A DNA stretch of 7,547 bases from the NCBI GenBank assembly GCA_018894595.1, contig JAHIPN010000028.1, positions 1 to 7,547 on the forward strand, read 5' to 3'. The translations under genes and the position numbers were made by a program. Below are positions 26 through 5,755 of the stretch, one piece after another; the stretch's first letter is position 1, and each line of letters starts with the position of its first letter. Origin of the DNA: a bacterium (GTDB lineage: Bacteria; Atribacterota; JS1; SB-45; 34-128). The notes below the pieces were generated by a model. That model was not told the origin of the DNA and did not search any database. It saw only the letters and a list, made by a program, of their open reading frames with translations.

Positions 26-283
26 ATGGTAAAAAAAACGAAAATTGAAGAAATTTATAGCGGCTTACCTAAAGTTGAAACTAAGCACAAAGAAAAAGAA
101 GATAAATTTGTAAGAGTCAATTTTTATATCCGGGCAGATGAGAAGGAAAGATTGAAACAATACACTGAACAAATAGCGCCACGACATTTAAAAGTAACCC
201 AGTCAGAAGTGATCCGTTACATGGTTGAAGTATTTGACCTGGAGCAAGCTAAAAAAGACTTCTTTAAAGTTAAGGATAATTAA
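26..283 (+). CDS. small ribbon-helix-helix (CopG/ParG-like) DNA-binding protein
   Basis: This 85-aa basic protein has a disordered charged N-terminus (about residues 1-27). It is followed by a beta strand (VRVNFYI, about 29-35), a first helix (about 38-50) and a second helix opening with TQSEV (about 58-70). That order is the ribbon-helix-helix fold, which dimerises and reads DNA with the paired strands. The start is fixed by a strong SD (GGGGGTGATT) five bases before the ATG. Its stop overlaps the ATG of the methyltransferase remnant (TAATG), and the initiator gene follows 127 bp later. Family knowledge: such proteins next to plasmid rep genes act as copy-number repressors or partition/centromere-binding proteins. 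Which applies here is not visible. The fold is fairly sure and the role is inferred. Confidence 0.7.
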   Translation: MVKKTKIEEIYSGLPKVETKHKEKEDKFVRVNFYIRADEKERLKQYTEQIAPRHLKVTQSEVIRYMVEVFDLEQAKKDFFKVKDN

Positions 284-409: not shown

Positions 410-1915
410 GTGAATGAAAAAGACGAAAAAGAGATACGCCAAAAAGAATTAGCCTCCGTCTTAACATTGTATTATCAATCAGGATCAGCTAACCAACCCC
501 GGCTATTTAAGGTAAATGAAAAAGAAGACCAGGTATTAAAGAGCTTTTATAGACTAATAAAAAATGAAGCAAAAAAAAGAAAGATCAGGCCCTTAGAACT
601 AATAAGATATTTTGCAGAAAATAAAGATGAACTAATTGAATTCTTAGAGAAGAAAAAAATTGAACACCCTAAGTTTAAAAAAATCTATACTCATTCAGAA
701 ATAGAAAACATATTGCACAAGGTATTTAAAACTCAAAAATTAAACGACAAAGGTATGAGCATTATAAACGAGGATTTTATGGCCGGGGAAGTTAAGATTT
801 GGGAAAGCAAAGGAGTAGAGTATATTGTTAAAGCTGATGATCTTCTAAAATTTGAAGGCAGACCTCCAAAAGTGTATGTAAGCCAAATTAAAAACTTATC
901 CTTATTAATGGGCATGATACAGGAACAGCAATTTAACAATCCCGCAAAAGAAGCAAAATGTGAATTTCCATTTCCTTATTATGCGGAAAGAAGAGGTTAT
1001 TCCAAAGAAGAGATTCAACAGCAAAGGAATTTTTATAATGAATTAAGAAGAGATTTGCTTACTGGAGCTTATACGACATACAGAATTGATAAAATAATAA
1101 TTGACGGCAAGAAATATACCAGACACGGCATACCAAATTTTTACATTTTAGATGAGCCTGAAGATCCGAAAGATGCTTGGATAGTTACCTTTAATAATCC
1201 TTATTCTGACTGGGTTACAAAAATTTTAAATGGAGAGGCCGGCCAGTATTTTACTAAAAATACAAGGGCCATTGAAGACAGAAAAACTACCGAAAAACCT
1301 TATTTATTTTTATTCTATATGCAGCTTATAAAAAGAAAGAGGGCTAATTTACTTACAACCCCTGTAAAAATAGGAAACCTTTTAGAAGATATGAAAATTG
1401 ATGAGCAAATTTTAGCCAGGCCTAAGGAATGCTACAAACTTCTAAAGGAATGTTTAATTTATTTTAGTGAGCATTATCAACCGGTCCCCGAGATAGACCA
1501 ATTCTTTTTATATAATGATTTTCATAAAACAAAAACGGTAAAATTACCGTTGTATATATCGGAAGCATTTGAAAAATATAGCTATACAGACTTTAAAGAC
1601 CTTATAAAAGCAATAGGTATAAAAGACATAAGGGAAGCATTTATTAGTTTTAAAAGACCACATATTAAGCCAAAAAAATTAAAATTAAACGAAGAAGAAA
1701 AGGAGATTTTAGAGAGAACTTTAAAATGGTTTAATGGCCAGGTAACAAAGATTCCTCTTAAGGATCAGGAAAGCATGCTAGGAATGTATATTAAAAAAAT
1801 AGGTTACGAGAATTATAAAAAATTTTTTGAACTAGAGGCTAACAAACTTGAAGCCAACGCAGTGGAGTTTTTAACCAAAGTTTTACCAGACAAAGTAAAA
1901 TTTACCACACATTAG
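410..1915 (+). CDS. probable plasmid replication initiator protein
   Basis: This 501-aa, lysine-rich soluble protein has no signal or membrane segment. The GTG start at 410 has AAGAGG seven bases upstream. The N-terminal 80 residues are helical and charged. Residues about 295-355 (YLFLFYMQLIKRKR, then TTPVKIGNLLEDM and an amphipathic helix) look like the winged-helix DNA-binding domain of plasmid Rep proteins, preceded by a TRHGIPNFYIL strand region (237-247). The strongest evidence is positional: the stop codon lies inside the first of a set of 32-bp direct repeats with DnaA-box-like sequence, the usual place for iterons. I could not assign it to a named Rep family. No metal-nicking HUH or Tyr motif typical of rolling-circle Reps was seen, so theta replication is the better guess. 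Confidence 0.6.
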   Translation: MNEKDEKEIRQKELASVLTLYYQSGSANQPRLFKVNEKEDQVLKSFYRLIKNEAKKRKIRPLELIRYFAENKDELIEFLEKKKIEHPKFKKIYTHSEIENILHKVFKTQKLNDKGMSIINEDFMAGEVKIWESKGVEYIVKADDLLKFEGRPPKVYVSQIKNLSLLMGMIQEQQFNNPAKEAKCEFPFPYYAERRGYSKEEIQQQRNFYNELRRDLLTGAYTTYRIDKIIIDGKKYTRHGIPNFYILDEPEDPKDAWIVTFNNPYSDWVTKILNGEAGQYFTKNTRAIEDRKTTEKPYLFLFYMQLIKRKRANLLTTPVKIGNLLEDMKIDEQILARPKECYKLLKECLIYFSEHYQPVPEIDQFFLYNDFHKTKTVKLPLYISEAFEKYSYTDFKDLIKAIGIKDIREAFISFKRPHIKPKKLKLNEEEKEILERTLKWFNGQVTKIPLKDQESMLGMYIKKIGYENYKKFFELEANKLEANAVEFLTKVLPDKVKFTTH

Positions 1916-1990
1916 CAACAAAATAAGTAGATTTATCCCCACATTAGCAACAAAATAAGTAGATTTATCCCCACATTAGCAACAAAATAA
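1908..1990 (+). repeat. 32-bp direct repeats (putative iterons), 2.6 copies
   Basis: Two identical 32-bp units start at 1908 and 1940, and a third, partial unit starts at 1972 and matches for 19 bp before diverging. Each begins CACATTAGCAACAAAATAA. The junctions contain TTATCCCCA at 1933-1941 and 1965-1973, one mismatch from the DnaA box TTATCCACA. The first unit overlaps the last codons and stop of the initiator gene. A 32-bp pitch is about three helical turns, so bound initiators would sit on one face of the DNA. The repeats are directly seen; the iteron role is inferred. Confidence 0.85.
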
Positions 1991-3492: not shown

Positions 3493-4071
3493 ATGAAATT
3501 TACCAGGAGAAAAAAACTTCCGGTAGTCTTAGAGCCAGCTGAAGCCCAAAAACTTATAAAACAACCCAACAGAAGATATATCACCGGCATACGCAATAAA
3601 GCCATTATTCTTGTGATGTTGAATATGGGCCTTAGGGTATCAGAGACAACAGATCTAAAGCCTGGCAGTATTAACCTTACCAGCAGGAAACTGAGGGTTG
3701 TTAATGGTAAAGGAGGGGTAGACAGGGATCTAGTTATCCCGGTCGGGATTGAAGAAACTTTAATGCAGTGGAAAGGCAGGAAACCCAGGGGAACAAAATA
3801 CTTTTTTACTACCCTTAAAGGCAAGCAATTAAGTACCAGGTATTTATGTGAGATGGTTAAAAGATATGGCCGAAAAGCTAAAATAGATAAGATCATAAGC
3901 CCACATACCCTAAGGCATACTTTCGCTACCGAATACTACAGGCAGACCAAAGATATCGAGACCCTGAGAAGAATCCTGGGACACTCTGATATAAGCACAA
4001 CTACTATCTATATTACCCTGGCCAACATAGATGTAGAAAAGGGGATGAATGAGTTTAGAATCATAGCGTAA
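3493..4071 (+). CDS. tyrosine recombinase (XerC/D-type integrase), catalytic domain only
   Basis: This 192-aa protein shows the full active-site set of phage-integrase/Xer recombinases: Arg48 in GLRVSE, Lys73 in NGKGG, His138 and Arg141 in HTLRH, His164 in GHSD, and nucleophile Tyr173 in TTIYIT. These enzymes cut and rejoin DNA through a 3'-phosphotyrosine link. Typical Xer proteins are about 300 aa with an N-terminal SAM-like core-binding domain; that domain is absent here, leaving only a short basic leader (MKFTRRKK). The ATG is well placed, with AGGGG seven bases upstream, so truncation by misannotation is unlikely. Plausible jobs are plasmid dimer resolution or cassette integration/excision. 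A dif-like sequence lies about 30 bp after the stop. Family is certain; role is inferred. Confidence 0.92.
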   Translation: MKFTRRKKLPVVLEPAEAQKLIKQPNRRYITGIRNKAIILVMLNMGLRVSETTDLKPGSINLTSRKLRVVNGKGGVDRDLVIPVGIEETLMQWKGRKPRGTKYFFTTLKGKQLSTRYLCEMVKRYGRKAKIDKIISPHTLRHTFATEYYRQTKDIETLRRILGHSDISTTTIYITLANIDVEKGMNEFRIIA

Positions 4072-5178: not shown

Positions 5179-5241
5179 TAATAGTGAACTATTACTGTAT
5201 GTGGTATTAGTTGTGGGCCCGCTGAGTACAATATGTGGTAT
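5179..5241. repeat. TATGTGGTAT direct repeat (34-bp pitch) and preceding dyad
   Basis: TATGTGGTAT occurs at 5198-5207 and 5232-5241, 34 bp apart, with the palindrome GGGCCC (5215-5220) between them. Just before lies TAATAGT-GA-ACTATTA (5179-5194), a perfect 7-bp inverted repeat with a 2-bp centre. The short-repeat, GC-palindrome, short-repeat pattern foreshadows the GTAGGAC array downstream at the same pitch. Confidence 0.7.
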
Positions 5242-5274
5242 CCGGTCCAGCTGCAGCATGTACCATATGTTGTA
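5227..5274. repeat. 14-bp-stem hairpin with 20-nt loop
   Basis: TACAATATGTGGTA (5227-5240) pairs along its full length with TACCATATGTTGTA (5261-5274) if two G-U wobbles are allowed. The 20-nt loop contains CCGGTCC and the 8-bp palindrome GCTGCAGC. Wobble-type mismatches with no broken pair suggest the structure may matter as RNA or single-stranded DNA. Confidence 0.7.
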
Positions 5275-5284
5275 AATATAAAAT

Positions 5285-5424
5285 GTCCTACTCCTGCAGC
5301 TGGATATCTTAATAATTGTAGGACAGTTTCAGGACCGGCCGAAACAATTTGTAGGACAAATTAATCTCCGGAGATTAATTTTTGTAGGACAAGATCTCCG
5401 GCGCCGGTCCGGGAGAAGTAGGAC
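5285..5424 (+). repeat. phased GTAGGAC motif array with palindromic spacers
   Basis: GTAGGAC occurs at 5318-5324, 5351-5357, 5384-5390 and 5418-5424, and its reverse complement GTCCTAC at 5285-5291, so steps are 33, 33, 33 and 34 bp. The wider context is roughly TTTGTAGGACA. Each 26-27-bp spacer from 5325 on is itself symmetric. The first has stem GTTTC/GAAAC around a CGGCCG core. The second is a perfect 24-bp palindrome (5358-5381). The third has TCTCC/GGAGA around the perfect palindrome CCGGCGCCGG (5398-5407). The motif is a dyad around AGG (GT-AGG-AC). No CRISPR-length repeat is present. Iteron, centromere-like site or recombination site are all possible. Confidence 0.8.
5358..5381. repeat. 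perfect 24-bp palindrome
   Basis: The two 12-bp halves are exact reverse complements, meeting at the centre CTCCGGAG with AT-rich arms. It fills almost the whole spacer between two GTAGGAC motifs. It could extrude as a cruciform or bind a dimeric protein. Confidence 0.9.
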
Positions 5425-5483
5425 TTAAATTAAATAGTAGAAAAGGATCTAAATAAATTAACAAACCCCACGCCCCTAACCCC

Positions 5484-5519
5484 CTTTTTTAAATTCGCAA
5501 ACGACTCATTTTAAAAAAG
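5484..5519. repeat. 10-bp AT-rich inverted repeat, possible terminator
   Basis: CTTTTTTAAA (5484-5493) and TTTAAAAAAG (5510-5519) are perfect reverse complements separated by 16 nt, and are flanked by C-rich runs on both sides. An A/T-only stem is weak as an intrinsic terminator. It directly abuts the promoter-like element at 5525. Confidence 0.45.
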
Positions 5520-5532
5520 CCCCTGTTATACT
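5515..5532 (+). promoter_or_regulatory. extended -10 promoter candidate within the intergenic region
   Basis: TGTTATACT (5524-5532) fits TGnTATAnT. The preceding 17 bases match the promoter-like sequence before the recombinase gene (3435-3450) except for one extra C. No recognisable -35 is present. It would drive transcription through the large hairpin, the oriT-like block and the terminator-like element, none of which holds a convincing gene. Confidence 0.45.
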
Positions 5533-5560
5533 TTATTTTACTATTCTGCTAAAATTTACT

Positions 5561-5619
5561 CCTGTGCATTTGTTGAAAACCCGGCTACTGGCTGCCAAGT
5601 TTCCAACAGCCCACACAGG
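5561..5619. repeat. large two-part imperfect hairpin
   Basis: The outer stem is CCTGTG/CACAGG (5561-5566, 5614-5619). After a 4/5-nt internal loop comes a 10-bp stem with one mismatch, TGTTGAAAAC/GTTTCCAACA (5571-5580, 5599-5608). GGC/GCC can pair inside the loop. Such structures occur in plasmid single-strand origins, oriT regions and structured RNAs; the sequence does not decide which. Confidence 0.6.
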
Positions 5620-5655
5620 CTACAGTACAAAAAAATCCACTCCCCCTATTAGTAT

Positions 5656-5755
5656 TAAACGGTAGGTAAACGGTAGGCAAGATACGTATATGTATGACAA
5701 ACTGCGTTTGTCCCACATATACAGCTTATTTGAGGGTGTCCCCCAAACCCCCATT
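5656..5755. other. candidate oriT (transfer origin)
   Basis: Two tandem perfect copies of TAAACGGTAGG (5656-5666, 5667-5677) precede a strong hairpin at 5686-5722. The hairpin has outer arms GTATATG/CATATAC, a 3x3 internal loop, inner arms GACAAAC/GTTTGTC and a 3-nt loop. Immediately after come AGCTTATTTGAGGG and a C-rich tract with CCAAA/TTTGG. Tandem accessory-protein sites, an imperfect inverted repeat and a conserved nick region just beyond it is the usual oriT architecture, and a MobC-like gene lies about 1 kb downstream. ACAGCTTA resembles the ColE1-type nick CTGG/CTTA only loosely, so the nick site is not claimed. Confidence 0.45.

What the first reader, a model, noticed from the sequence alone, without database searches (positions are those of the whole stretch)
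5285..5424. Phased array of a 7-bp dyad with palindromes as spacers
GTAGGAC or its complement occurs five times at steps of 33, 33, 33 and 34 bp. The intervening segments differ in sequence, but those after 5325 are each symmetric. A conserved short motif at three helical turns with variable yet palindromic spacers is neither a CRISPR nor a normal iteron set. It could be a centromere/partition site, a multi-site recombination platform for the nearby recombinase, or stacked insertions of small palindromic elements. Spacing and symmetry are seen; function is inference.
Basis: partly seen in the sequence, partly recalled or inferred. Interest (0 to 1): 0.75.

Follow-up and report, generated by a model that had tools for sequence, protein, structure and literature searches.

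The report
Palindrome-rich modular array on small plasmid
A 240-base non-coding stretch of what looks like a small environmental plasmid is built from short symmetric DNA motifs spaced three helix turns apart; part of it is conserved in a sister plasmid, so it probably has a job, but what that job is remains unknown.

Summary
The motif observation is exact: GTCCTAC at 5285, GTAGGAC at 5318, 5351, 5384, 5418; no chain longer than three in 2000 shuffles. The symmetry claim is only partly right: one spacer is a perfect 24-bp palindrome, one partial, one weak. The window resembles a metagenomic plasmid family; close recombinases occur in 9 of 40 genomes of one bacterial class. Contig L296 carries the left half at 62/70 identity against 33/55 at fourfold sites of the recombinase gene (p 0.0003), so that half looks constrained. 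L296 has no GTAGGAC array, lacks a 49-bp block between two CAGCTG copies, and differs inside. The array is modular; the two spacers that can be compared are conserved, not hypervariable. Best reading (inferred): a cis-acting multi-site DNA element bound by a dimeric plasmid protein for maintenance or multimer resolution. It fails tests for CRISPR, iterons and integron attC; a recombination platform found little support. A functionless pile of junction scars is a serious rival. Interest moderate.

The parts
5193..5206 (+). left-half motif copy 1, TACTGTATGTGGTA
   Evidence: direct repeat family D1, spacing 34/34; inside a 21-bp block identical in L296
5227..5240 (+). left-half motif copy 2, TACAATATGTGGTA
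   Evidence: L296 has TACAGTATGTAGTA at the same 34-bp pitch
5261..5274 (+). left-half motif copy 3, TACCATATGTTGTA
   Evidence: lies in the 49-bp block absent from L296
5215..5220 (.). GC-rich palindromic spacer core GGGCCC
   Evidence: 13-bp identical block TGTGGGCCCGCTG in L296
5248..5296 (.). 49-bp block between two CAGCTG copies (5248, 5297), absent in sister contig L296
   Evidence: exact-match blocks 5244-5253 = L296 4499-4508 and 5297-5310 = L296 4503-4516
5285..5291 (-). GTAGGAC motif, reverse orientation (GTCCTAC)
5318..5324 (+). GTAGGAC motif
5351..5357 (+). GTAGGAC motif, within TTTGTAGGACAAA
5358..5381 (.). perfect 24-bp palindromic spacer AAATTAATCTCCGGAGATTAATTT
5384..5390 (+). 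GTAGGAC motif
5398..5407 (.). 10-bp palindrome CCGGCGCCGG in spacer 5391-5417
5418..5424 (+). GTAGGAC motif, last copy
5278..5318 (+). single unit also found alone in L354 (G262:C159:1353-1393, 93% over 41 bp) between two toxin-antitoxin-like operons (my reading)
5464..5640 (.). conserved non-coding flank (elements A and B) that recurs in family contigs
   Evidence: query 5464-5700: 13 matches in 6 of 40 genomes
3493..4071 (+). 192-aa XerA-like tyrosine recombinase, catalytic domain only; of the seven window proteins tested, the only one found in L296 (an incomplete contig)
   Evidence: PF00589 E 2.5e-32

Best explanation
A cis-acting DNA element of a small mobilisable plasmid family, about 5184-5424. 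It is made of 33-34 bp modules in which an AT-rich dyad (TACNNTATGTNGTA on the left, TTTGTAGGACAAA-like on the right) alternates with a GC-rich palindrome. SHOWN: phase, palindrome excess, constraint on the left half, and loss or gain of a whole block between two sister sequences. INFERRED: a dimeric plasmid-encoded DNA-binding protein binds one module per three helix turns on one face of the DNA and builds a higher-order complex for plasmid maintenance, most likely an accessory or multimer-resolution site used by the Xer-like recombinase, otherwise a segregation site for a ribbon-helix-helix protein. Modules are lost by slippage between short repeats such as CAGCTG that bracket hairpin-prone DNA.
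For: Phase and 6-bp palindrome density exceed dinucleotide shuffles. Left half 62/70 identical between window and L296, against 33/55 fourfold-degenerate sites of the recombinase gene, Fisher p 0.0003. Two different motif families share one pitch and one architecture. No strand preference of folding in the right half (RNA z -4.07 plus, -4.25 minus), as expected for double-stranded dyads. Of the seven window proteins tested the recombinase is the only one found in L296. No open reading frame of 50 aa or more covers the array. The 49-bp indel lies between 6-bp direct repeats inside an 11-bp inverted repeat.
Against: The GTAGGAC array is absent from L296, and no GTAGGAC pair at 22-30 bp gaps occurs in the 40 class genomes, so the right half is seen only in this window. 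Array DNA matches only 2 of 40 genomes at E <= 0.001. High identity of 70 bp could also come from recent exchange. Recombinase genes in the other 8 of the 9 genomes lie on (incomplete) contigs where no such array was recognised. No binding protein is identified. The left half folds at best weakly beyond composition (plus z -1.93, minus +1.5; L296 0.07 and 0.46).
Confidence: 0.4

Rival explanations
1. Accretion of small palindromic modules or junction scars without function: pieces left at cassette junctions (toxin-antitoxin modules come and go here) pile up and are trimmed by slippage.
For: L354 carries one unit alone between two toxin-antitoxin-like operons (gene reading mine); the L296 array lies between two truncated copies of an antitoxin-like gene start (by eye); the window array's right flank resembles a toxin/antitoxin junction (by eye); whole-block indel at CAGCTG.
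Against: Left half more conserved than fourfold sites; constant pitch across two motif families.
Confidence: 0.3
2. Recombination platform of the plasmid's tyrosine recombinase, analogous to an att array: cargo is exchanged between the recombinase gene's 3' end and the array.
For: In window and L296 different cargo lies between the recombinase 3' end (homology stops at 4049) and the array's left end (homology resumes at 5184). Recombinase C-terminal tails switch type: 6 changes among the 22 labelled closest rows of a quick tree. GTCCTAC...GTAGGAC are inverted copies.
Against: The 3'-end DNA does not resemble the array: 72 of 101 control stretches score as well or better. A conserved 7-mer with differing arms is the reverse of a usual core site (recalled). 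The common stop at 4049 may be one event, since the window has another tail than the compared L295, L296 and L298. The tree is poorly supported (12 of 113 inner branches starred; starred branches force at least 6 changes for the GF label and 4 for II over all 117 rows).
Confidence: 0.15
3. Structured non-coding RNA with hairpins joined by unpaired GUAGGACA linkers.
For: Plus-strand RNA of 5184-5430 folds at -79.5 kcal/mol, z -3.58.
Against: The minus strand is nearly as extreme (z -3.09), single-stranded DNA too (z -3.71), and the right half is equal on both RNA strands; the perfect palindrome has no separate loop; L296 homolog z about 0; no Rfam match up to E 1.
Confidence: 0.08
4. Operator array or remnant of toxin-antitoxin autoregulation.
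For: Toxin-antitoxin-like genes or fragments flank the elements in L296 and L354; 12-bp match TTTAATAGTGAA between window 5177 and a promoter-like stretch of L354.
Against: No antitoxin family was recognised among the seven window proteins tested; the match is short.
Confidence: 0.07

Closest known systems
Plasmid centromeres of ribbon-helix-helix partition proteins (delta/omega type, parS of short heptads; recalled; start of the abstract of PMC4498918 seen in a search listing)
   Same: Short 7-bp motifs in both orientations; a small RHH-like protein (my reading) at window 26-283, whose 49% identical homolog in L295 follows a ParA-like gene
   Different: Heptads there are contiguous (recalled); here 33-34 bp apart with GC-rich palindromes between; no comparable array seen in L295, which carries the ParA-like/RHH-like pair
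Accessory sequences and core sites of Xer recombination on plasmids (recalled)
   Same: Xer-like recombinase gene on both array-bearing sequences; 33-34 bp is close to a core-site length
   Different: No conserved inverted 11-13 bp arms around a 6-8 bp centre found; the conserved part is the centre, the arms differ
Integron attC sites (start of abstract of PMC2727003 seen in a search listing)
   Same: Short conserved 7-bp box, imperfect palindromes of differing sequence, tyrosine recombinase nearby
   Different: GTAGGAC does not fit the recalled GTTRRRY box at its third base; the recombinase scores 88.7 bits against a cut-off of 265 for integron integrase
Tandem GTAGGAC-containing repeats of bacterial genomes
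   Same: GTAGGAC at 32-35 bp pitch, some with an internal hairpin
   Different: Neighbouring spacers are alike (identity 0.6 or more) in 74 of 77 loci; in the window 0.46 and 0.26

Membership tests
CRISPR array | near-identical repeats of about 21 bp or more (recalled) | tested here: not met
   constant part is 7 bp
CRISPR array | cas genes nearby | tested here: not met
   none among the seven window proteins tested in Pfam, PHROGs, NCBIfam and PADLOC; DNA beyond the window not seen
Replication iterons | near-identical direct repeats beside the rep gene | tested here: not met
   array is over 3.2 kb from the Rep-like gene within the window and its units differ; three 32-bp iteron-like repeats lie at 1908-1990 directly after that gene
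Integron attC | integron-type integrase | tested here: not met
   TIGR02249 88.7 bits, cut-off 265
Integron attC | R box GTTRRRY paired with RYYYAAC (recalled) | tested here: not met
   GTAGGAC/GTCCTAC fit 6 of 7 positions (direct reading)
Xer multimer-resolution site | Xer-type recombinase on the plasmid | tested here: met
   PF00589; XerA/C/D models match below their equivalog cut-offs; also on L296
Xer multimer-resolution site | core of two inverted 11-13 bp arms around 6-8 bp, shared between relatives | tested here: inconclusive
   no such core recognised in the array; only two arrays to compare
RHH partition centromere | array located at the parA-RHH operon | tested here: inconclusive
   L295 (ParA-like gene then RHH-like gene) shows no such array upstream of ParA; the window does not include the ParA side
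RHH partition centromere | RHH protein binds the motif | not testable with these tools
   needs a binding assay
Structured RNA | folding beyond composition on one strand | tested here: not met
   no strand preference in the right half, L296 z about 0
Structured RNA | covariation | not tested
   too few sequences
Tandem or interspersed repeat | many near-identical copies | tested here: not met
   0 of 40 class genomes hold a GTAGGAC pair at this pitch; window spacers unlike

The most novel reading that the evidence does not exclude
The array is one end of a cargo-exchange system of a minimal (192-aa) Xer-like recombinase: cargo genes are swapped between the recombinase gene's own 3' end and a docking array whose modules share a constant centre while their palindromic arms differ, an integron-like platform of an undescribed type on plasmids of uncultured subsurface bacteria.
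Probability: 0.1. Interest if true: 0.8.

Novelty: new variant of a known kind. Interest (0 to 1): 0.42.

Why it matters
If the array is a maintenance or resolution site, it would be a first handle on how a little-known family of small subsurface plasmids keeps itself and swaps toxin-antitoxin-like and defence-like cargo. Its layout (constant dyads, mutually different but individually conserved palindromes, three-turn pitch, whole-block turnover) matches no described site that I know of. It can be tested directly by binding assays and by reading sister plasmids.

Tried and rejected
PLSDB plasmids: megablast of the whole window, no match; tblastn of the Rep-like protein, none; of the 332-aa ORF, 3 records at about 28% identity; of the recombinase, the 5000-record limit reached, best listed 44%. 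No genome is held for the window.

Of these 120, 11 had both pitches 33 or 34 in their least-alike match; 34 had unlike spacers (<0.6). Spacers of 20 of the 34 were printed; most look like coding repeats (my reading), L050 does not. None of the 34 had a perfect palindrome arm over 5 bp. Recombinase and Rep as single proteins: no relative; Rep alignment: none; recombinase alignment: 226 relatives, best listed 46%. CCTGTGCATTTNTTGAAAAC: 0.

Genome contigs: 77 stretches with three GTAGGAC at 32-35 bp pitch. Spacers under 0.6 alike in 3 of 77: L130 (edge of a tandem repeat), L128 (looks coding, my reading; its palindromes not measured), L170 (Arthrobacter; palindrome arms 3 and 2). About 0.9 chance triples are expected at uniform composition. 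This used the one scan, so the recombinase could not be sought there.

Ideas dropped: that 2174 or the recombinase 3' end is an array-like site (in one search the matches to 2150-2290, in 3 of 40 genomes, start after the GTAGGAC or end at it). RNA selection seen from plus-strand G-U pairs, dropped once shuffles were applied. GCTGGATATCTTNANNATT as a dispersed repeat: 19 matches in 15 of 40 genomes against 2 for the reversed control, but several are one recurring sequence in orthologous-looking places. TATGTNGTA pairs: 3 of 40 genomes, L296 plus two that look unrelated. Recombinase in the phylum of G001: 0 of 149. Promoter/terminator scan: none in the array. Paper searches: nothing on this plasmid family in the listings with those terms; only listings and abstract starts were seen, no paper was opened.

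Full report
WHAT WAS CHECKED. The five GTAGGAC/GTCCTAC positions and their steps are exactly as reported. In 2000 dinucleotide-preserving shuffles of 5184-5430 the longest chain of any 7-mer at 31-36 bp steps was three, once; the observed chain is five. The same stretch holds 13 perfect 6-bp palindromes against a shuffle mean of 4.2 (1 of 2000 shuffles reached it); its three 8-bp palindromes are not unusual (200 of 2000). The symmetry statement holds fully for one spacer only (5358-5381, perfect 24-bp palindrome), partly for 5391-5417 and weakly for 5325-5350.

The array is longer. A different motif, TACNNTATGTNGTA, occurs at 5193, 5227 and 5261 with pitch 34 (family D1) and also alternates with GC-rich palindromes (GGGCCC, CAGCTG). 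So two motif families share one architecture: an AT-rich dyad, then a GC-rich palindrome, repeated every 33-34 bp. Larger overlapping dyads connect modules (5246 with 5294, 11 bp; 5332 with 5403, 8 bp). No ORF of 50 aa or more covers the stretch.

WHERE IT COMES FROM. No genome is held for the window. The protein searches scored only the best 8000 or so candidates: 99 relatives of the Rep-like protein and 750 of the recombinase at E 1e-40 or better, 120 listed. Most carry no name; names seen include subsurface metagenome, Atribacterota and Candidatus Humimicrobiaceae. A spread search of the phylum of an acidimicrobial genome found close recombinases (E <= 1e-45) in 8 of 296 genomes, and in 9 of 40 genomes of one class; the Rep-like protein matches 2 of those 40. 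By my reading this is a small-plasmid family: the 5193-bp contig L295 carries ParA-like, RHH-like, Rep-like, recombinase and toxin-antitoxin-like genes and repeats behind its Rep-like gene.

THE KEY COMPARISON. Contig L296 (4999 bp, G456:C26; recombinase 91% identical over the part present; the contig is incomplete) holds the same locus. Window 5184-5253 equals L296 4439-4508 at 62/70 bases; window 5464-5619 equals L296 4681-4836 at 85%. In the recombinase gene the fourfold-degenerate sites of the same two sequences are identical at 33/55. The left half is thus more conserved than nearly neutral sites (Fisher p 0.0003; the A-B flank likewise). Recent exchange of the segment could give the same picture. 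Left motif 1 (21-bp block), the GGGCCC spacer (13 bp) and the GGTCCAGCTG spacer (10 bp) are identical in both: spacers differ from each other within an array, but those that can be compared are not hypervariable between relatives.

The interior differs in blocks. L296 lacks 49 bp that in the window lie between two CAGCTG copies (5248, 5297), between direct repeats and inside an 11-bp inverted repeat: a classical setting for slippage deletion (recalled). Beyond GATATCTT the window has the GTAGGAC modules, while L296 has another left-type motif (TACTATATGTGG) and then GGTCCGGAGA, which resembles the window's GGTCCGGGAGA. The GTAGGAC array is absent from L296, and no GTAGGAC pair at 22-30 bp gaps exists in any of the 40 class genomes. 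Array DNA finds 2 of 40 genomes at E <= 0.001: L296 and one more place, L354 (G262:C159:1353-1393), which carries one unit (93% over 41 bp, E 1.4e-10) alone between two toxin-antitoxin-like operons.

HOW IT MAY WORK. The right half folds far better than shuffles on both strands (RNA z -4.07 and -4.25); the left half at best weakly on one (-1.93 and +1.5); the L296 homolog does not (0.07 and 0.46). That speaks for symmetric double-stranded DNA rather than RNA. With constraint, phase and symmetry, a multi-site protein-binding element is the best-supported reading. Of the seven window proteins tested the recombinase is the only one found on L296, which makes it the first candidate partner, with the caution that L296 is incomplete and that recombinase genes of the other 8 genomes lie on contigs without a recognised array. 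Against a direct role as crossover sites: DNA around the recombinase gene's 3' end, where homology between contigs stops (window 4049), is no more similar to the array than control stretches (72 of 101 as good).

WHAT IS STILL OPEN. Only two arrays and one isolated unit are known. The GTAGGAC half, the very part reported, is seen in this window alone. A functionless pile of junction scars remains a serious rival. The metagenome collection that probably holds more copies could not be scanned.

VERDICT. A real, non-random, modular palindromic array on a little-known plasmid family, partly conserved; function inferred, not shown.

Noticed in passing
window 4049-4071; recombinases P0100-P0219: The last 8-9 residues of the recombinase come in block types (KSFKGFL, NEFRIIA, RGFKIIV, KSFTIIA) that differ between relatives about 90% identical elsewhere; 6 changes between the GF and II types among the 22 labelled closest rows of a quick, weakly supported tree. 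May mark a crossover point at the gene's 3' end, upstream of exchanged cargo.
   Followed up: partly
window 5561-5619; L296 4778-4836, L298, L328 (two), L329, L331: Element B, a conserved imperfect inverted repeat CCTGTGCATTTRTTGAAAAC...GTTTCCAACAGCC..CACAGG, recurs in family contigs, often at operon boundaries (my reading); its minus strand folds better than shuffles (z -4.62; L296 copy -3.09; alignment). Candidate oriT, single-strand promoter or RNA.
   Followed up: partly
window 5464-5525; L328, L330, L332, L333: Element A, CCCCACGCCCCTAACCCCCTTTTTTAAAT...AAAAAAGCCCC, a hairpin-like segment repeated at operon boundaries, in L328 and L330 before genes that look like RadC and ArdC (my reading).
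   Followed up: no
L354 528-632 and 2596-2694; L329 4622-4724 minus: About 95-nt conserved leader ending in a CCCCGAG...CTCGGGG hairpin and T run, three copies, two of them before toxin-antitoxin-like genes; no Rfam match at gathering thresholds. Possible new structured RNA.
   Followed up: partly
window 1908-1990: Three 32-bp direct repeats at the end of and behind the Rep-like gene, iteron-like.
   Followed up: no
Genome-contig loci among L122-L192, many Lachnospiraceae and Ruminococcus: A recurring tandem repeat GTAGGACTCACYGCTTTTAT..TTCCACT.. at 34-bp pitch in many gut Clostridia.
   Followed up: no
window 5872 and 5959: Two near-identical 16-bp direct copies GTAATGCTGCATTRCT, each nearly palindromic, 87 bp apart.
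   Followed up: no
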